DNA from: a virus | Length of the DNA stretch: 23,213 nt | Direction: 5' to 3' (one strand) | IMG/VR virus record: IMGVR_UViG_3300047392_000324 | Location: 1-23,213 of that record | Shown: in pieces, positions 5,265 through 22,440 of the stretch | How positions within the stretch are numbered: position 1 is the stretch's first letter | Layout: each line of letters begins with the position of its first letter | Made by a program: the position numbers and the translations under genes | Notes under the pieces: model-generated | Databases searched by the model: none | The model's input: the letters and a program-made list of their open reading frames with translations, nothing else | What the model was told of the DNA's origin: nothing

Positions 5265-5537
5265 TTATTTAGTCAATATTTCAATTTGTTTATCAATCTC
5301 AGACTGACGTTGTACATCCATCATTTTACGATCAGTTGCCTGAATCATTCTCTTTTCAGATTTTAGACCTTCGATTTCTAAGTCTTTCTTAGTTGCTAAA
5401 GAATCTAAAACTGTGATTTGTTTCTTAACTTTGGTTACCTCAGAATTCACACTACATGATTTCATATAGGTTAATATTACCAAAACGATAATAATTTTAA
5501 TACCATGTTTCTCTAAAAATAAATTAAATTTGTTCAT
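5265..5537 (-). CDS. Single-pass membrane protein with coiled coil
   Basis: The 90-residue protein has a short N-terminus, a hydrophobic segment IKIIIVLVILTYM (about residues 13-25), a Cys at about 28, and then a charged helical stretch rich in Lys, Glu and Gln to the end. The architecture of one membrane anchor plus a coiled coil occurs in phage spanin-like and other accessory proteins, but the sequence does not decide between them. No signal peptidase II lipobox is clear. The gene is packed 1 nt upstream of the CxC protein gene. Confidence 0.7.
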   Translation of the reverse strand: MNKFNLFLEKHGIKIIIVLVILTYMKSCSVNSEVTKVKKQITVLDSLATKKDLEIEGLKSEKRMIQATDRKMMDVQRQSEIDKQIEILTK

Positions 5538-5567: not shown

Positions 5568-6308
5568 TTAGTTTAATTGTTTGAATTCAGCGAGTCTCTT
5601 TTGAAAGATTCCAAAGTAATGTTTTAAGTCCTTTTCAGTCAATGTAAATCTCTGTGGACATGTATCTATTTCATTAGCAATCCAAATTTCTGCGCCGATT
5701 GGTCGAATTCCAGTTCGTTCCCAGAAGGCAACAAAATAAGCCGATGCTTGGACATAATAATCTTGAATCCAATCATCCTTCTTAGGTTTTCTGCTATTCT
5801 TATAATCTATAATGATAACTCGATCGTCAATCAATCTTGAAACATTATCAACTGTACCAGCGTATCCTCCACCTTTTTCTGACCATAAAAACTTTTCAGC
5901 TGCTAGGACTTCTTTAATTTTGTCAAAGAATTGGTCGTGATTGTTCCAGAATTTCATAAAGAATTTAAATCCTTCTTCAATAAATTCAGTATCAAATTGT
6001 TTGATTTCTCGGTCTTTGTGTAGTAGTTTCTTTAATTCACCGAGTCGTTCTTCCTTAGTACCAGGAATCTGTTTGTATAATTCAATAAGTCTATGCATTA
6101 CTGTCCCACGATTCATAGACAGTGTTGAGATTCTATTTGCTTCCTCTTCTCCAATTCGGGCTTTCCAAGCATCTAAACCAGACTTATCGCTAGTTCCTCC
6201 AAGAACTGTTGTAACTGAGGGAAAGACTCCTAGGATCTCTTTCCCTCGACTTACTTGATAGTATCTGTTACCATTTTTCTCTACTCTTTTAATTCTTTCA
6301 GTAGCCAT
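5568..6308 (-). CDS. PD-(D/E)XK nuclease family protein (Cas4/RecB-like)
   Basis: The 246-residue protein carries the ordered motifs of the RecB/Cas4 branch of PD-(D/E)XK nucleases: a GTVMHRLIE segment with His72, an Asp at 154 in GGYAGTVDNV, the IIDYKNS motif with Asp168 and Lys170, and a QASAYF motif with Gln187. These would bind a metal ion and cut DNA. No four-Cys iron-sulfur cluster is visible, unlike many Cas4 proteins. The gene shares one base with the next upstream frame. A role in phage recombination or DNA end processing is inferred from the fold only. Confidence 0.85.
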   Translation of the reverse strand: MATERIKRVEKNGNRYYQVSRGKEILGVFPSVTTVLGGTSDKSGLDAWKARIGEEEANRISTLSMNRGTVMHRLIELYKQIPGTKEERLGELKKLLHKDREIKQFDTEFIEEGFKFFMKFWNNHDQFFDKIKEVLAAEKFLWSEKGGGYAGTVDNVSRLIDDRVIIIDYKNSRKPKKDDWIQDYYVQASAYFVAFWERTGIRPIGAEIWIANEIDTCPQRFTLTEKDLKHYFGIFQKRLAEFKQLN

Positions 6309-6751
6309 TAAAATGGTAGTTTATGCCATGGTATAAATTTAATTGCTGCCCATATTGATGTTGCATATGCTCCAGTTGCTAAGATTGCAGTAATTACAGC
6401 ACCTGGATCGACATAGTCGGTTTCAGGATAGAGAATAACTAAATACGAATCAGTTCCTTCAACTCGTCTAATATCTGGGAACATAACATCTGATAAACCA
6501 TATTTCACCAAGATTTGACTAATAGGATTTAATGATTGGATAACAATCGATTGCTGTAGTAATTCAGGTTGATTAAGTTCATCACCTTCTAGATTAATTA
6601 CAGCATAAACACGGCCAATCCAGTCAACTCGTAGACCTTGTTCATATAATTCAGGCTCAATAGCTTTTACTGCTCTGTAGCACTTAATAAGTAACCATGC
6701 TTCTTTTACAAAAAAGAACCAGTACTTTATAACATTAATTGGATTCAACAT
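6308..6751 (-). CDS. Hypothetical protein with a C-terminal membrane segment
   Basis: The 147-residue protein starts MLNPINVIKYWFFF with a hydrophobic first 25 residues, has a soluble middle, and ends with a second hydrophobic stretch, VITAILATGAYATSIWAA, before a short basic tail. Membrane association is likely. It overlaps the stop of the thioredoxin gene by 17 nt, so it sits in the same operon. I do not recognise the family. Confidence 0.7.
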   Translation of the reverse strand: MLNPINVIKYWFFFVKEAWLLIKCYRAVKAIEPELYEQGLRVDWIGRVYAVINLEGDELNQPELLQQSIVIQSLNPISQILVKYGLSDVMFPDIRRVEGTDSYLVILYPETDYVDPGAVITAILATGAYATSIWAAIKFIPWHKLPF

Positions 6752-10189: not shown

Positions 10190-10735
10190 TTACTTGTTAA
10201 TCGGCATTGTAATCTTATCTCCTTCTGGAGTACTGTAGATAATTCTGGTCGGTTGTAGGTCAAATGCTGAATCTTCTAGCATTTTAGTGTATTTCTCTCC
10301 TAGACCCTTCTTAATATAAGCAATTGTCATGTGAGGGTGATAATCTGGAAAGGAATTAGTATGTGGCAATTCTGCTAGAGCTTCATTACATTCATGTAGA
10401 TTTTCACCTTTAATATCAAACTTTAAAACATCGTATTGGTTCTCAAAAAGAGAAGCATTATGTGCTTCACAAGCTTTAAATTTAAAGTTACTAACAATTT
10501 CTTGAATCTGCTCTGGTGTAACCTCCTTATGTAAACCATAAAGTAGAGTGCAGTGTGGTTCATCTTCTAAACCATAACTTCTGTCCTCTTCTTCAGTATA
10601 TAAATCCTCTTCTGCTATTTTAGCATGAATGTCTTTTATTTGTGGAAAGTCAAAATACAACATAGCACAGCCATATTCATAACTGTCTCCCTTTTTCTCA
10701 AGAATAAATTCTTCAAATAATTTTACTGCTTTCAT
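10190..10735 (-). CDS. Capsid-targeted 2H phosphoesterase (LigT/2'-5' RNA ligase-like)
   Basis: Residues 1-13 (MKAVKLFEEFILE) are the capsid-targeting module with a predicted cut after Glu13. The body has two H-x-T motifs, HCTLLYG at 61-67 and HMTIAYI at 135-141, which are the paired catalytic signatures of the 2H phosphoesterase superfamily. Members cut 2',5' or cyclic phosphodiester bonds; the phage anti-CBASS protein Acb1 and RNA-end-processing enzymes belong to it. The total length of 181 is normal. Inference: the enzyme is packaged in the head and delivered with the DNA, where it could remove a cyclic-nucleotide signal or act on RNA ends. It is the last gene before a terminator and follows its neighbour by 1 nt. 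Confidence 0.87.
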   Translation of the reverse strand: MKAVKLFEEFILEKKGDSYEYGCAMLYFDFPQIKDIHAKIAEEDLYTEEEDRSYGLEDEPHCTLLYGLHKEVTPEQIQEIVSNFKFKACEAHNASLFENQYDVLKFDIKGENLHECNEALAELPHTNSFPDYHPHMTIAYIKKGLGEKYTKMLEDSAFDLQPTRIIYSTPEGDKITMPINK

Positions 10736-12198: not shown

Positions 12199-12380
12199 TT
12201 ATGGTCTTCGTCTTTTTGTTTTTTTCTAGATGCTACCTCTTCTCGTAATTCCTTGATTCTTTCTTTTAGTATTTTAATTCTAAAATCATCCAATTGTTGA
12301 ATGATAAAAAACTTAGATCGGTTTTGCTCTAATTTAGTTAGAGATGCTTCAAAATCCTTGATTAATTTAAAGAGTGCCAC
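12195..12380 (-). CDS. Small basic coiled-coil protein
   Basis: The 61-residue frame (MALFKLIKDFEASLTKL) is helical, with heptads and a basic Lys-rich end. It lacks the MKxxKLFExF module, although FKLIKDFEASL is loosely similar. It is translationally coupled to the first capsid-targeted gene by a 4-nt overlap. Function is unknown. Confidence 0.65.
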   Translation of the reverse strand: MALFKLIKDFEASLTKLEQNRSKFFIIQQLDDFRIKILKERIKELREEVASRKKQKDEDHK

Positions 12381-12408
12381 TTTAGTTTATTATTTTATAG
12401 TCTATATA

Positions 12409-14127
12409 TTATTGAATCATTTTAATCCGTTCTTTAACAGACGGTGGAATTTTACTAATCAAACTTTTAAAACATGCATCTAAAACATAGGTCACAGCCC
12501 AATCATCTTTACTTCTGACAGATCGTCCAACTCCTTGTAGAAATTGAACTGAAGTTTTCCAATCATACCATTCTGGCATGTAGTTCATTTTTGCTTTAAT
12601 ATGAGGAGATGCCAATGATGGATATGGCACTTTAAAGAAAATTTGGAATCTGCTAATATCGTCTTTTAAATCAAGTCCTTCTAATAAGGATGGACCAACT
12701 AGGACGGCATCCTCTTTTTTCTTAAATAGTTCTAATGTATCTGCTTTCTCTTTTGAATTCTCGTAATTCATTAATCTAAATGTATGTTTACTTTTAGACA
12801 TAATGTAATTCATAAACTCATAGGATCCACAGTGAATAACTCCTCTTTGTCCTTTATGTTTGCTAATAATTTTATCTAAGATTTCTACAACTTTTGGTAA
12901 ACTTGCATCCTTTTCTCTCATTGACATTTTATGTTTATTAACAAAAACTATCGGAGATTTATCATAATTAAAATCATTTGAGAGTCTAATAAATCGGGCA
13001 TTTTCAATTCCCATAATTTTCATATAACTTGCAGGGTCTCCAATTGTGGCACTCATGAAAACCTTAAAGTTAGCTCTTTTATGTAGATGTTTTTTAATTA
13101 GCCATTGCTCTTCTAAGCAGGTAAATTGAGCCTCTTCTGCTTTCTGGTCTGGTACTAATTTATCAATACCAACTTGTTCAATAATTTCAATAAAGTCCTC
13201 GAACTTACAATGAATATCCTTAATTCGGTCAATTGTTGAAAAGGCAGTTTGCCAGTCCTTTGGTACATCTCGATCTCCAAATCTTTTCTTTGACGCTGCT
13301 TTAATATCGTCTCCGCTCTCTAAATACATTGATAGAAACTTTTTTAGCTCCTTCATTGTCATTAAAAGTTCTGGTTTATCAGTTGTTTTAAGAAGAGTGT
13401 TAAAGATTGATTCCAATTTGTTTTTCGTCACTCTGGGTTGATTGAACGCCCATTTCTGTAAGAAACCATTTAAAACTAAAACCTTTGTTATTAGTGTCCG
13501 GTCAATACGCGGACTAAAATGGTTCTGGACAATTTCATCAACTTTATGAGCCTCATCAAAGAATACAAAATCTCTTTGAGCAAAAGGTGAACCACCTTCT
13601 TCAGCTTTTTTATCTTCAACATAATTACGTTGAATTAACCAAAAACTATAATTAAGTAAAGCAATTCTAGAGTTGATTGCCTTTTCACGTGCATTTAAAT
13701 ATCCGCAGTTTGAGTAGCATGGTAGATCCTTTGCTTTTTCATAACTCATTCCTTTCAGTCGACAATCTCCAAGACTGAATGGTAAACCATTAACAGAGCA
13801 ATCATAATTGTCAACTCCTTTAATCGATCCCCAAGGTAACTTTAATCTATATAAATCTGACTCGTATTGGTCTTGTAAACTCAGGTCACTCGTGATTAAG
13901 TAACCTTTCTTACCTAATTCAATTAGGACCAGACTAGATGCCATTGCAATAATGGACTTACCAGTTCCGGTTGGTGCATCAATTACGATTGTACTTTCTG
14001 GATCTTCAAAATAAGTTCTACAAATTGCTTCTACTGTTTCTCTTTGGCCGGAGCGGAATTCAAAACCAGGACCTAAAAGTCCTGTTTCTACTATTTTATC
14101 GAGTTGTTGTTTGATTTGTTGCTCCAC
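12409..14127 (-). CDS. DinG/XPD-like SF2 helicase with Fe-S cluster motif
   Basis: The 572-residue protein has a Q-motif-like FRSGQRE near residue 28, Walker A TGTGKS (53-58), a DEAH box at 191-194, and motif VI QGVGRSVRS near residue 540. Between motif I and the DEAH box, Cys110, Cys122, Cys137 and Cys141 have the spacing of the 4Fe-4S cluster domain of XPD, DinG and related 5'-3' DNA helicases. It therefore probably unwinds DNA with ATP, acting in replication, repair or recombination. The length is shorter than E. coli DinG (716). The start overlaps the end of the epimerase gene by 32 nt. Confidence 0.92.
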   Translation of the reverse strand: MEQQIKQQLDKIVETGLLGPGFEFRSGQRETVEAICRTYFEDPESTIVIDAPTGTGKSIIAMASSLVLIELGKKGYLITSDLSLQDQYESDLYRLKLPWGSIKGVDNYDCSVNGLPFSLGDCRLKGMSYEKAKDLPCYSNCGYLNAREKAINSRIALLNYSFWLIQRNYVEDKKAEEGGSPFAQRDFVFFDEAHKVDEIVQNHFSPRIDRTLITKVLVLNGFLQKWAFNQPRVTKNKLESIFNTLLKTTDKPELLMTMKELKKFLSMYLESGDDIKAASKKRFGDRDVPKDWQTAFSTIDRIKDIHCKFEDFIEIIEQVGIDKLVPDQKAEEAQFTCLEEQWLIKKHLHKRANFKVFMSATIGDPASYMKIMGIENARFIRLSNDFNYDKSPIVFVNKHKMSMREKDASLPKVVEILDKIISKHKGQRGVIHCGSYEFMNYIMSKSKHTFRLMNYENSKEKADTLELFKKKEDAVLVGPSLLEGLDLKDDISRFQIFFKVPYPSLASPHIKAKMNYMPEWYDWKTSVQFLQGVGRSVRSKDDWAVTYVLDACFKSLISKIPPSVKERIKMIQ

Positions 14128-15158: not shown

Positions 15159-15165
15159 AATTAAC

Positions 15166-15224
15166 GGGATGTACTATCTGGGTTTGAGTAAAAGTCAAAA
15201 GATAATATTTGCTGCAGACATCCC
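15166..15224 (-). ncRNA. Standalone scaffold element E1
   Basis: On the minus strand the ends GGGATGT and ACATCCC pair over 7 bp. Inside the helix comes TCTG...CAGA pairing and the motif CAGCAAAT, which aligns without gaps to the leaders of the two permuted tRNAs and to E2. The apical part holds a 5-bp stem TTTGA/TCAAA with a 7-nt loop CTTTTAC (15183-15199), shaped like an anticodon arm. The element lies between the permuted tRNA and tRNA-Thr. Function is unknown. Confidence 0.6.
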
Positions 15225-15234
15225 AATAAGGTAC

Positions 15235-15372
15235 AGGTTTCTGTTTTTGCGGACCAGCGTGTTTACCAATTTCACCACTCTCCAATGTTTCATAGTTAAT
15301 TTTGTTGGAGAGGTAGGACTCGAACCTACAATATACCGGTTTTCTGTGCTTAAAATTTGCTGTAAGAAACCT
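15235..15372 (-). ncRNA. Scaffold flanking the second permuted tRNA
   Basis: The leader strand AGGTTTCT (15365-15372) and the trailer strand AGAAACCT (15235-15242) are perfectly complementary, closing an 8-bp helix around the permuted tRNA halves. The leader continues into TACAGCAAA, the motif shared with the tRNA-Asn scaffold, E1 and E2. The trailer has an A-rich stretch (CAAAAAC) next to the helix, as in the tRNA-Asn copy. Confidence 0.7.
15246..15340 (-). tRNA. Circularly permuted tRNA, probably Cys(GCA)
   Basis: The 3' half (15305-15340) comes first: anticodon-stem strand ACCGG, variable TATATT, T-arm GTAGG-TTCGAGT-CCTAC, acceptor CTCTCCA, discriminator A. A 20-nt linker follows, then the 5' half (15246-15284): acceptor TGGAGAG, D-arm GTG...CAC, and anticodon stem CTGGT. 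CTGGT pairs with ACCGG and TGGAGAG with CTCTCCA, so both arms close only if the halves are reordered. If the loop comes from the 5' half it reads CCGCAAA, anticodon GCA, with C at position 33 instead of the usual T. Other junctions would give other anticodons, so the identity is tentative. The D-arm looks leucine-like, but the variable region is short. Confidence 0.78.
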
Positions 15373-15383
15373 TTAACGTGTTG

Positions 15384-15560
15384 TTAAGCTTTGTTAGCCT
15401 CAGAAACTGATGTTCTTACTGCTTGTGCAATAGCTTTAATTTCTTGCATTTGTTTTCTAACTCTTGTACCAGCTGACTTGTTACCTTTTTCAGTAAATTT
15501 AGTTGCTTCTTCACGAGCGATGTTCAATGCTTCTTGGATTTGTTCTAGTTGTTCTAACAT
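15384..15560 (-). CDS. Histone H1-like protein (Hc1-type)
   Basis: The 58-residue protein starts MLEQLEQIQEALNIAREE and contains FTEKGNKSAGTRVRKQMQEI. The EKGNKxAGxRxRK pattern matches the small histone H1-like proteins common in Bacteroidetes, which bind DNA and help to compact it. The length is typical. It lies between the tmRNA terminator and the permuted tRNA. A TATAAATA box 22 nt upstream suggests late expression, which would fit a role in packaged or late-stage DNA. This gene is one of the better pointers to the host group. Confidence 0.85.
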   Translation of the reverse strand: MLEQLEQIQEALNIAREEATKFTEKGNKSAGTRVRKQMQEIKAIAQAVRTSVSEANKA

Positions 15561-15614: not shown

Positions 15615-15638
15615 AAAAAGCTACACTTTCGTAGTAGC
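15615..15638 (-). terminator. Terminator of the tmRNA
   Basis: On the minus strand GCTAC(T)AC closes on GTGTAGC over a GAAA loop and is followed by TTTTT at 15615-15619. It ends the coding piece of the permuted tmRNA. Confidence 0.75.
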
Positions 15639-15681
15639 CACGTGAATTTTGTTAACACTAGTTAAGAAAATTCAACCGCGA

Positions 15682-15711
15682 TTACGCGGCTAGTGCAAAG
15701 TTGTCGTTTGC
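15682..15711 (-). other. tmRNA tag reading frame
   Basis: The frame GCA AAC GAC AAC TTT ... ends in GCG TAA and encodes ANDNFALAA. With the alanine brought by the tmRNA this gives the tag AANDNFALAA, which ends in the ALAA degron recognised by ClpXP-type proteases. The stop codon lies in the loop of a GC-rich hairpin, as in cellular tmRNAs. Confidence 0.93.
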
Positions 15712-15853
15712 TTTTACTAATCATCTCTCCCTACCACATTCTATACTGTCAAAAGCCTGGTCATCCCCATGATTTTATTTTAATTTGGTGGAGATGGCGG
15801 GAATCGAACCCGCGTCCAATACAGTGTCAATAAGTGTCATCAACAACTAGTTG

Positions 15854-16509: not shown

Positions 16510-16565
16510 GGGATGCTGTTTTGCTTTTTCCAATAAAAGTTTTGTATATTTGCTGGAAGCATCCC
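16510..16565 (-). ncRNA. Standalone scaffold element E2
   Basis: The ends GGGATGCT and AGCATCCC pair over 8 bp on the minus strand. The 5' strand continues TCCAGCAAATATA, with TCCA pairing to TGGA deeper in the element, and a CAAAAC stretch precedes the 3' strand. The first 21 nt align without gaps to E1 and to the two permuted-tRNA leaders. Both E1 and E2 are followed by GTTAA and then a tRNA, within 8 nt. Confidence 0.6.
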
Positions 16566-18834: not shown

Positions 18835-19425
18835 TTATTTTAAAAATTTTAATACTTTTTCTTTAATTCCTGATTGTTTAATACCTTCCATTGATCTTGG
18901 AGTCAAGACAAAGTTTTCTAGTCCCCATGTTCGTTCAATGTTATCATAGTTTTTAGCCATGTTTAAGTCATCAATCGCAACCCAATGAGTAACTTCAGGA
19001 TGACGTTGTAACCATTCTAAGATTTCAACATGTCTCTCTTGTTCTAACATCCAAGTTCGGTTCCAATTAATGTCCTCATCTTTAAGATGTGCAGCGCCTC
19101 CATCATTATATAAGTCTCGACAGAATGCAGTTGCATCAATTGGACGCTTAATGATTCCTTGTGACTCATAGTAATCACCCAGTTCCTCTACAGTTGCCCA
19201 TCTTTTCCAGTCTGATGATACTACTATCTCAGCTCCGGTTTCCTCGATGATTGAATTAAGTATAGCTACTGCCTTCTTATTAAAGTTATCGAAACGATAC
19301 TGAACATCTAATGACATAACAGATTGACTCATCTTACGACCAGCTTTTTGCTGTTTCTTAATTCGACCTCCCCATTCAGTAGAAAGGCAAATTACTCCAT
19401 CATTATCTAAAAATATAACTTTCAT
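18835..19425 (-). CDS. HAD-family phosphatase-like protein A (RNA-repair-associated type)
   Basis: Motif I is FLDNDGV with Asp7 and Asp9; motif II is VVSSDWK with Ser70 or Ser71; the acidic motif IV is VAIDDLN with Asp152 and Asp153. The SSDW pattern and the TGAEIV strand match the HAD domains described in Swiss-Army-Knife RNA repair proteins, as I recall that family. Most members remove phosphate from an end or a small molecule. It is paralogous to the next gene upstream and follows it by 1 nt. The substrate is unknown. Confidence 0.85.
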   Translation of the reverse strand: MKVIFLDNDGVICLSTEWGGRIKKQQKAGRKMSQSVMSLDVQYRFDNFNKKAVAILNSIIEETGAEIVVSSDWKRWATVEELGDYYESQGIIKRPIDATAFCRDLYNDGGAAHLKDEDINWNRTWMLEQERHVEILEWLQRHPEVTHWVAIDDLNMAKNYDNIERTWGLENFVLTPRSMEGIKQSGIKEKVLKFLK

Positions 19426-19426
19426 T

Positions 19427-19999
19427 TTAATAATTTAATTCAATTACTGTTTTGTTTAATTTATTAACTGCTTCATAGAAGTAAGTTTCGTTAAATCCAT
19501 CTTTATTTCTTGGAGATGGTAGTACATGCACAAAATGATTTTTTTGACCATATAACATATCTGAATCATCATCGATAATAATGTAATTTTCTACTCCTGA
19601 ATCGTTAATATATTTTTGTTGTTCTTCTTCTGACCAGTTAACATGTCGAAATTTTAAATCATTTTCTAAATAGTATTTGATTTCTAATCCTCTTGGAATA
19701 TGAATACCTTGAGTTCTCATTAAAGGTGTAATACCAATAATTTCGCCATGCATTTCTTCAAGTTCCCATACTTTTTTCATGAAATCAATACCACTTATTC
19801 TCCAACTAGAACTAATAACAATCTTTGCTCCAGTTTCATCAATCAACTTATTTAACAATTCTTTGCTTTGTACACAAAATCTTTGATAGTGATCTTTACG
19901 ACCATCTTCCCAAGTCCATTCTTGATATTTACATTCACCGTTCTTATATGCATTTTCGCAATTAAGAACTCCATCTATGTCCAAGAATATTATTTTCAT
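19427..19999 (-). CDS. HAD-family phosphatase-like protein B (RNA-repair-associated type)
   Basis: Motif I is FLDIDGV with Asp7 and Asp9; motif II is VISSSWR (63-65); the acidic motif is IIIDDDSDM (143-145). The domain is the same as in the downstream neighbour, but the sequences differ widely, so the duplication is old or the genes were acquired separately. It stands directly behind promoter motif copy 3 and would be the first gene of a unit of HAD, HAD, homing endonuclease and exonuclease. Confidence 0.87.
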   Translation of the reverse strand: MKIIFLDIDGVLNCENAYKNGECKYQEWTWEDGRKDHYQRFCVQSKELLNKLIDETGAKIVISSSWRISGIDFMKKVWELEEMHGEIIGITPLMRTQGIHIPRGLEIKYYLENDLKFRHVNWSEEEQQKYINDSGVENYIIIDDDSDMLYGQKNHFVHVLPSPRNKDGFNETYFYEAVNKLNKTVIELNY

Positions 20000-21196: not shown

Positions 21197-21230
21197 AAAA
21201 AAGGGTAGGATCAGACGCGTTCTGCCTACC
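21197..21230 (-). terminator. Terminator of the second RNA cluster
   Basis: Minus-strand stem GGTAGG/CCTACC with an inner CAGA/TCTG pairing and an ACGCG loop, followed by a CTTTTTT run. It lies after the last tRNA-like gene and before the 345-residue CDS. Confidence 0.88.
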
Positions 21231-21275
21231 GAGACCTTGTCGTTAACTTTCGTCAGAGCGTACCAAGACACATTG
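21231..21275 (-). other. Short interval between tRNA-like gene and terminator
   Basis: The 45 nt include CTTGG and CAAGG segments (minus strand) that could form a weak hairpin over GTTAACG. No gene is seen. Confidence 0.35.
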
Positions 21276-21354
21276 TTGCGATTAGAGGAATCGAACCTCC
21301 CAGGGGTATATCTACCAAATCAACTCATGAGATTGACCTTACACCGATATCGCA
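21276..21354 (-). tRNA. Atypical tRNA-like gene, anticodon CAU
   Basis: Acceptor TGCGATA pairs with AATCGCA apart from the last pair; T-arm GGAGG-TTCGATT-CCTCT is normal. A stem TCAAT/GTTGA closes the loop CTCATGA, anticodon CAT. The D region is only about 12 nt (normal is about 17), and 19 nt with a GGTA/TACC hairpin stand in the variable position. An alternative fold pairs ATATC with GATAT around the whole middle. It could be a diverged elongator Met or Ile2 tRNA, or a tRNA-like RNA. Discriminator A followed by CAA. Confidence 0.6.
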
Positions 21355-21361
21355 ATATAAC

Positions 21362-21481
21362 AGGATGGTTTTTTGTACGTGCTCTACCAACTGAGCTATT
21401 GATTCTGAAGAATCAAGTCGGGCTCGAACCGACGACCACGAGGTTAACAGCCTAGATTTTATTTTTTGCAGTAACCATCCT
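21362..21481 (-). ncRNA. Scaffold flanking the permuted tRNA-Asn
   Basis: The leader AGGATGGTT (21473-21481) and the trailer AACCATCCT (21362-21370) form a perfect 9-bp helix. The leader continues ACTGCAAAA, the motif shared with E1, E2 and the second permuted tRNA; the trailer has ACAAAA next to the helix. The tRNA halves fill the loop between the two. Confidence 0.75.
21378..21453 (-). tRNA. Circularly permuted tRNA-Asn(GUU)
   Basis: On the minus strand the 3' half (21453 to 21409) comes first: AGG, loop CTGTTAA (anticodon GTT), CCTCG, variable TGGTC, T-arm GTCGG-TTCGAGC-CCGAC, acceptor TTGATTC, discriminator T. Only TCA separates it from the 5' half (21405 to 21378): acceptor GAATCAA, TA, D-arm GCTC-AGTTGGTA-GAGC, A, and CG. 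Joining CG to AGG restores an anticodon stem CGAGG that pairs perfectly with CCTCG, and gives a 73-nt tRNA with every arm intact. The junction between positions 28 and 29 is unambiguous because the flanking bases differ. CCA is not encoded. No unpermuted tRNA-Asn is seen in the window. Confidence 0.93.
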
Positions 21482-21482
21482 T

Positions 21483-21557
21483 TGGCGGTCCCACCGGGAA
21501 TCGAACCCGGCACTTTGCCGTGACAGGGCAATATTATAGCCGATTAACTATGAGACC
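21483..21557 (-). tRNA. tRNA-Asp(GUC)
   Basis: Acceptor GGTCTCA/TGGGACC, D-stem GTTA/TAAT, anticodon stem TTGCC/GGCAA with loop CTGTCAC (anticodon GTC), T-arm CCGGG-TTCGATT-CCCGG. Discriminator G, the usual Asp identity base, and an encoded CCA. It ends 1 nt before the leader helix of the permuted tRNA-Asn. Confidence 0.94.
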
Positions 21558-21773: not shown

Positions 21774-22145
21774 AAATATGGAAGGTCACCACCTGCACCT
21801 TCCGTGGTAGCTTTTAGAATCTTTACAATTCTAAGGTTTCGAATTCTTTACAGTGTGTCTTGTTCTGAAAGACGTCAACTACTGTTTCATAGTCACCGCA
21901 CGCCGCTACTTGTTACCTTAACGCGAAATGGTTTTAAGCATAAGTTATTGATAAATTGACCAAATTTCTTTCCAGAGCAGGATAAATGAAGCTATCACAT
22001 TGTCTTCTAATACCGATTGAGATTGCAGCCTCTAAGGTTCCTGATGCGCCATTGTCTTTCCTCTACTTTCGTTAAACTATGGGTTATTGGGTTTTGGCAG
22101 TGTCCCATTTAACATACTCATAAAGTACTTTTTCATTATCAATAG
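21774..22145 (-). ncRNA. Long non-coding interval B with several hairpins
   Basis: This 372-nt stretch between tRNA-Ala and tRNA-Glu has no plausible coding frame. On the minus strand it holds hairpins near its 3' end: ACTA/TAGT over a TGAAACAG loop, GTCTT-TCAGAAC-AAGAC (5 bp, 7-nt loop), TTAGAAT/ATTCTAA (7 bp) and GGAAGGT/ACCTTCC (7 bp). GTAGC and GCTAC bracket several of them. GAGGAAAGAC near the middle recalls the RNase P conserved box I, but the matching P4 strand is missing. I treat it as a candidate large structured RNA of unknown type. Confidence 0.45.
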
Positions 22146-22219
22146 TGGAGCCTAAGGGAGTCGAACCCTTGACCTCTTGCGTGCAAGGCAAGCGCTCTAG
22201 CCAACTGAGCTAAGGCCCC
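22146..22219 (-). tRNA. tRNA-Ala(UGC)
   Basis: Acceptor GGGGCCT/AGGCTCC contains G3-U70, the alanine identity pair. D-stem GCTC/GAGC, anticodon stem CTTGC/GCAAG with loop CTTGCAC (anticodon TGC), T-arm AAGGG-TTCGACT-CCCTT. Discriminator A followed by CTA. Confidence 0.95.
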
Positions 22220-22440
22220 AATTTCAACTGATGAGATTAATTCAGTCTAGATATATCGGTTTGTTTCCTATTCAAACAACCTGCTGGTCTTACCCGTTTA
22301 AAAAAGTCAAGTTACAGTGGACGCTCTACTACCTGCGTTATTTCCTCCGAGACTGGCGTTTAAGGACGTCCAGTCTAATACCCTATCCATTGTTAAATAA
22401 GTCTTGGATTAAAGACTAATGAGTTATCTCTAACTCTTTG
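22220..22440 (-). ncRNA. Non-coding interval C, chain of hairpins
   Basis: The 221 nt between tRNA-Met and tRNA-Ala lack a plausible gene. On the minus strand four hairpins follow one another: GAGTTA-GAGA-TAACTC, AGTCTT-TAATCC-AAGACT, GACTGG(A)CGT/ACG-CCAGTC, and GGTTGTTT/AAAC(A)AACC. This density is higher than expected for spacer DNA. A structured RNA is inferred; no family is recognised. Confidence 0.45.

What the first reader, a model, noticed from the sequence alone, without database searches (positions are those of the whole stretch)
15615..15853. Permuted (two-piece) tmRNA in the same phage
The acceptor piece, with CCA and G3-U70, precedes the coding piece with tag ANDNFALAA, a stop hairpin and a terminator. 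Permuted tmRNA is established in some proteobacteria and cyanobacteria. Finding it beside permuted tRNAs, in a phage that probably infects Bacteroidetes, suggests that this phage lineage favours or tolerates permuted RNA genes.
Basis: partly seen in the sequence, partly recalled or inferred. Interest (0 to 1): 0.9.

Follow-up and report, generated by a model that had tools for sequence, protein, structure and literature searches.

The report
Compact two-piece tmRNA in Bacteroidota phages
A phage that probably infects Bacteroidota carries a gene for a ribosome-rescue RNA (tmRNA) whose two halves are written in swapped order; such genes are known in other bacteria and phages, but this one belongs to a small, unusually short family in which a long helix between the two pieces stands where a knot normally sits.

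Summary
The permuted tmRNA is real. ARAGORN and Rfam RF04321 (76 bits) both call it on the minus strand at 15853-15615, tag ANDNFALAA, G3-U70, encoded CCA. No one-piece tmRNA reaches cutoff in the window or in any record searched that has this gene. I found relatives in L002, L006/L007 and five further phage types (L127, L128, L129/L131, L130, L132), plus a divergent one (L008). Across seven distinct sequences the proposed helices pair in 99% of cells, with 12 pairs changed on both sides; slid controls give 33-61%. So P2 passes the refutation test. Two-piece tmRNA in phages is already published, so the kind is known. New here: the host group looks like Bacteroidota, and the architecture is compact. 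PK1, found in the alpha- and beta-type phage comparators, is absent; a conserved 10-bp helix between the pieces ends 4 nt before the resume codon. The nearest giant relatives carry a one-piece tmRNA. Apparently genuine permuted tRNA genes (Asn, Leu-like) lie beside it and recur in about 15 phage contigs. But the two traits coincide only in the window and L002, so a shared cause is not shown. All functional steps are inferred.

The parts
15786..15853 (-). acceptor (3') piece of tmRNA: P2 3' strands, T-arm, acceptor 3' strand, encoded CCA
   Evidence: RF04321 76.1 bits; alignment with seven relatives; exact 5' end unknown
15842..15851 (-). P2c 3' strand ACUAGUUGUU (pairs with 15716-15725)
   Evidence: 10-bp helix, 97% cells paired, 3 pairs with double change
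15828..15834 (-). P2b 3' strand CUUAUUG (pairs with 15730-15736)
   Evidence: 7-bp helix, 100% cells paired
15817..15824 (-). P2a 3' strand CUGUAUUG (pairs with 15741-15748)
   Evidence: 8-bp helix, 98% cells paired, 6 of 8 pairs with double change
15797..15813 (-). T-arm GCGGG-UUCGAUU-CCCGC
   Evidence: invariant stem
15786..15796 (-). acceptor 3' strand CAUCUCC, A73, CCA; U70 partner of G3
   Evidence: paired with 15762-15768; pair 5:68 A-U/G-C compensatory among relatives; G3-U70 invariant
15769..15785 (-). 17-nt spacer between the two pieces, expected to be removed in processing
   Evidence: direct reading; length and sequence vary in relatives
15615..15768 (-). coding (5') piece: acceptor 5' strand, D-like region, P2, tag, hairpins
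   Evidence: exact 3' end unknown
15682..15711 (-). tag reading frame ANDNFALAA plus UAA
   Evidence: ARAGORN; same or similar tags in relatives: ANDEFALAA, ADGEFALAA (read directly)
15674..15691 (-). P5 hairpin with the stop codon in its loop
   Evidence: pair 126-137 with four pair types; also picked by the terminator scan
15643..15674 (-). hairpin H6 UGAAUUUU..AAAAUUCA
   Evidence: 93% complementary arms; fold retained in relatives with other sequence
15615..15638 (-). hairpin H7 with ACGAAA loop, followed by T5 in the window
   Evidence: ACGAAA in all aligned relatives; T run absent in L127-L132
15853..15927 (-). ordinary tRNA-Ile(GAT) directly upstream
15225..15385 (-). neighbouring permuted Leu-like tRNA gene with paired flanks (context)
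21370..21485 (-). permuted tRNA-Asn(GTT) gene with paired flanks (context, approximate ends)

Best explanation
This is a circularly permuted ssrA gene whose transcript is most likely cut into a two-piece tmRNA. Host RNase P would cut before GGGG (15768), and tRNA 3' processing would free the acceptor end at or near the encoded CCA (inferred). The two pieces would be held together by the acceptor stem and a long P2 of three helices (pairing shown by covariation). With host AlaRS (G3-U70), EF-Tu and host SmpB, it would enter stalled ribosomes, switch them to GCA and add ANDNFALAA, a ClpXP-type tag (inferred). In infected cells, which probably contain many cleaved mRNAs, it would keep ribosomes and amino acids available to the phage (inferred). 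It belongs to a compact subtype in which P2c, a helix between the pieces, stands in the place of pseudoknot PK1.
For: ARAGORN and RF04321. RF04321 hits over cutoff in nine further contigs of this type (L002, L006, L007, L127-L132) and in divergent L008. Covariation: 99.0% of cells paired, 12 pairs and 27 cells changed on both sides; 0 of 500 shuffles reached the values for cells paired, double-change cells and covariation score, and slid controls gave 33-61%. Tag ending and stop hairpin kept. No H-type pseudoknot in the 36-37 nt before the tag, while the same script finds PK1 in alpha- and beta-type phage comparators. No SmpB gene in nine related records, with SmpB found in 10 control genomes including Bacteroides ihuae, so host SmpB would be needed. 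E. coli tmRNA with PK1 replaced by single-stranded RNA still tags in vivo (PMC4236655).
Against: No expression, processing or tagging data. The tetramer before the resume codon is AAAA, AAAC, CGAC, CUAC or GUAC rather than the AUAG/AUAA preferred elsewhere. The helices were partly read from the same sequences used to count them. Only seven distinct sequences in about three groups were counted. The record is a 23-kb fragment and the host is inferred.
Confidence: 0.87

Rival explanations
1. An ordinary permuted tmRNA captured recently from an alpha- or betaproteobacterium; the phage is a vehicle and the architecture is nothing special.
For: Tag ANDNFALAA looks proteobacterial (own knowledge); RF04321 was built from alpha, beta and cyanobacterial genes; other phages carry alpha- and beta-type genes.
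Against: RF01849 gives only 10.5 bits (cutoff 50) against 52.9-62.7 for alpha-type phage genes L030 and L032. No PK1. No genome of 84,980 species holds this exact acceptor arrangement (a strict pattern). Several diverged members exist in phages.
Confidence: 0.15
2. A decoy or regulator: a tmRNA-like RNA that occupies SmpB or AlaRS and blocks host rescue, not a working tagging RNA.
For: A tag-less phage tmRNA-like RNA (DS6A) inhibits endogenous tmRNA (PMC11915505). Lack of PK1 and an unusual upstream tetramer.
Against: The tag frame, its FALAA end, the stop codon and P5 are conserved through synonymous change in several phages, which a decoy would not need.
Confidence: 0.1
3. A decayed or chance arrangement: a one-piece tmRNA or tRNA remnant that only looks permuted.
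For: The nearest giant relatives have one-piece tmRNA.
Against: E 3e-13; compensatory changes across both pieces; no one-piece gene over cutoff in member records.
Confidence: 0.01

Closest known systems
Permuted (two-piece) tmRNA, Rfam RF04321; alpha RF01849, beta RF01850, cyano RF01851
   Same: Gene order, acceptor stem with G3-U70, T-arm, inter-piece P2, tag with Ala resume codon and ALAA end
   Different: PK1 absent and coding piece shorter; long inter-piece helix P2c next to the tag; does not reach the RF01849 or RF01850 cutoffs; host group looks like Bacteroidota
Phage two-piece tmRNA such as Methylophilales phage Melnitz (PMC9004378)
   Same: Phage-borne permuted ssrA in aquatic phages
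   Different: Melnitz gene is alphaproteobacterial in type and linked to a glutamine riboswitch; neither seen here
One-piece tmRNA RF00023 of giant relatives (LR756500, Lak phages)
   Same: tmRNA function expected; related phages by helicase
   Different: Gene not permuted; tags GNNAEMRMAA (LR756500) and a Lak tag ending in RMAA, different from ANDNFALAA
Circularly permuted tRNA genes (Cyanidioschyzon merolae, PMC3978253)
   Same: 3' half precedes 5' half
   Different: Need cutting and ligation into one molecule; two-piece tmRNA does not

Membership tests
Permuted two-piece tmRNA (RF04321) | match over curated cutoff | tested here: met
   76.1 bits against 47
Permuted two-piece tmRNA (RF04321) | acceptor piece upstream of coding piece, acceptor stem pairing between them | tested here: met
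   7 bp, one pair compensatory
Permuted two-piece tmRNA (RF04321) | P2 between the pieces | tested here: met
   25 pairs in three helices, 97-100% cells paired, 10 with double change
Permuted two-piece tmRNA (RF04321) | tag frame with Ala resume codon and stop | tested here: met
   ANDNFALAA
Permuted two-piece tmRNA (RF04321) | mature RNA is two separate pieces | not testable with these tools
   needs RACE or RNA-seq
Known alpha/beta subtypes | PK1 between P2 and tag | tested here: not met
   none in window, L127, L128, L129 or L008; found in L030, L035, L033
Alpha subtype RF01849 | score over 50 bits | tested here: not met
   10.5 bits
One-piece tmRNA RF00023 | whole-model match over 47 bits | tested here: not met
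   39.5 bits, acceptor part only

The most novel reading that the evidence does not exclude
A phage-borne lineage of two-piece tmRNA, separate from the alpha, beta and cyanobacterial ones, arose or diverged in Bacteroidota phages and replaced PK1 by an inter-piece helix, giving a minimal two-piece tmRNA.
Probability: 0.45. Interest if true: 0.75.

Novelty: new variant of a known kind. Interest (0 to 1): 0.6.

Why it matters
It extends two-piece tmRNA to phages of a bacterial group whose only control genome here gave no permuted match. It also offers a natural tmRNA without PK1, so that the role of PK1 in setting the resume codon can be tested on an evolved example. ARAGORN missed or misread it in all six L127-L132 loci, so it is probably under-annotated. 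It also puts a permuted tmRNA beside apparently genuine permuted tRNA genes, for which I found no report in phages.

Tried and rejected
Looked for the same acceptor arrangement in 84,980 species genomes: none. Looked for cellular relatives of the epimerase to fix the host: none. RF04321 was not found in the Flavobacterium phage immuto, Microcystis phage Mel-JY01, an uncultured giant phage (LR756508) or nine further giant or Bacteroidota phages (the large set was scored with strict filters). Weak hit in G054 (21 bits) reads as coding sequence: rejected. Terminator reading of the last hairpin rejected as its main role. The junction and anticodon of the Leu-like permuted tRNA could not be fixed. 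I did not infer a tree of the tmRNAs: too short and too diverged.

Full report
Observation. On the minus strand, directly after tRNA-Ile, the window holds an acceptor piece and then a coding piece of tmRNA. ARAGORN marks it as permuted with tag ANDNFALAA and RF04321 gives 76.1 bits. The standard tmRNA model matches only the acceptor end and stays below cutoff. Chance is excluded by the E-value and, independently, by covariation below.

Relatives. The helicase beside it led to L002 (99% helicase identity) and L006/L007 (88%), all with the same permuted gene and tag. L006 has acceptor GGGGGUG/CACCUCC instead of GGGGAUG/CAUCUCC, a compensatory change, and encodes CAA instead of CCA, so CCA must be added there. 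A pattern tuned to the unusual GGCUUU segment found five more types, L127, L128, L129/L131, L130 and L132, all over the RF04321 cutoff. ARAGORN missed or misread the gene in all six of these loci. L008, from a phage with proteins like those of Flavobacterium phage immuto and Microcystis phage Mel-JY01, is a divergent member with a tag ending in MAMAA (tag read directly).

Structure. Co-folding and comparison gave P2 in three helices: P2a next to the tRNA-like domain, P2b, and P2c, which ends 4 nt before the resume codon. I built a composite of the two pieces, leaving out the spacer, the D-like region and the unpaired P2a-P2b linker so that the strands stay in register. Over 43 pairs and seven distinct sequences, 99.0% of cells pair. 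Twelve pairs and 27 cells change on both sides (shuffled means 6.8 and 8.6), and slid versions pair in 33-61%. G3-U70 never varies. The stop codon lies in a covarying hairpin loop. Caveat: the helices were partly read off these sequences and several are close relatives.

What is missing. Two-piece tmRNAs of the known lineages typically carry PK1 and PK2 in the coding piece (PMC3985003). A simple H-type pseudoknot search finds PK1 in the alpha-type L030 and L035 and the beta-type L033 phage genes (72-75 nt between GAC and resume codon), and none in the window, L127, L128, L129 or L008 (36-37 nt). P2c occupies that place. In E. coli PK1 can be replaced by single-stranded RNA without losing tagging in vivo (PMC4236655), so absence of PK1 does not argue against function.

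Host and origin. The nearest helicase is from a 462-kb uncultured phage; those with named hosts come mostly from Chryseobacterium, Prevotella and Tenacibaculum phages. None of 25 ORFs has a Shine-Dalgarno-like site, which fits Bacteroidota (own knowledge). The giant relatives LR756500 and Lak carry one-piece tmRNA, and most of the 80 related contigs show no permuted gene (many are fragments). So the permuted form is sporadic. Whether it was captured or arose in phages is open.

Mechanism. Shown by sequence: gene order, conserved pairing, conserved tag frame. Inferred: RNase P and 3' processing into two pieces, alanylation, use of host SmpB (no SmpB gene in nine related records), tagging and recycling of ribosomes during infection.

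Permuted tRNAs. The claim that permuted tRNAs lie nearby holds up. The permuted Asn gene, when its halves are joined, is read by ARAGORN as tRNA-Asn(GTT), and the unjoined DNA is not (a CCA end was supplied in the joined test sequence). Eight distinct versions of its acceptor stem pair 6.4 of 7 on average, against 3.3 when halves are swapped between phages. Leader and trailer pair with each other. But permuted tRNAs and the permuted tmRNA occur together only in the window and L002 among loci examined, so a common cause is not shown.

Verdict. A real new variant of a known kind. Phage two-piece tmRNA is published (PMC9004378; 79 phage tmRNA sequences in the 2025 database), and I could not check whether any of those is of this subtype.

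Noticed in passing
window 21370-21485 (-) and 15225-15385 (-); L002, L042, L121, L133-L144: Permuted tRNA genes (Asn GTT; Leu-like) with compensatory acceptor stems and paired flanks (GGATGG..CCATCC; GGTTTCT..AGAAACC) sharing a C[AT]GCAA motif, in about 15 phage contigs. I found no report of permuted tRNA genes in phages; may be more novel than the tmRNA.
   Followed up: partly
window 15165-15227 and 16510-16565; L006 at the site of the permuted Leu-like gene: Hairpins GGGATG..CAGCAA..CATCCC just upstream of ordinary tRNA genes share the flanking motif of the permuted tRNAs but hold no tRNA; they may be empty forms of the same element.
   Followed up: partly
G008 106291-106890, G009 5771-6361, G060 132558-133076, G083 12236-12727: T4-type RNA ligase 1 (PF09511) in related phages, a candidate for joining permuted tRNA halves; weak fragment in G001.
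   Followed up: partly
window 18835-19999 (-): Two adjacent HAD_SAK_2 proteins, a domain named from RNA-repair proteins.
   Followed up: no
window 10190-10735 (-): 2H phosphoesterase-like protein just over the cutoff for Acb1 anti-CBASS.
   Followed up: no
window 21205-21290 (-) and 21800-22420 (-); L006 about 5375-5450: Non-coding stretches in the tRNA array, one of them conserved in L006 and other contigs (CGCTCTGACGAAAGTTAACGACNAGGTCTCGGTAGGCAGAACG..), without an Rfam match; possible unknown structured RNA.
   Followed up: no
L008 3999-4658 (+): ClpP-type protease gene about 2.4 kb from the divergent permuted tmRNA; tmRNA tags are ClpXP signals.
   Followed up: no
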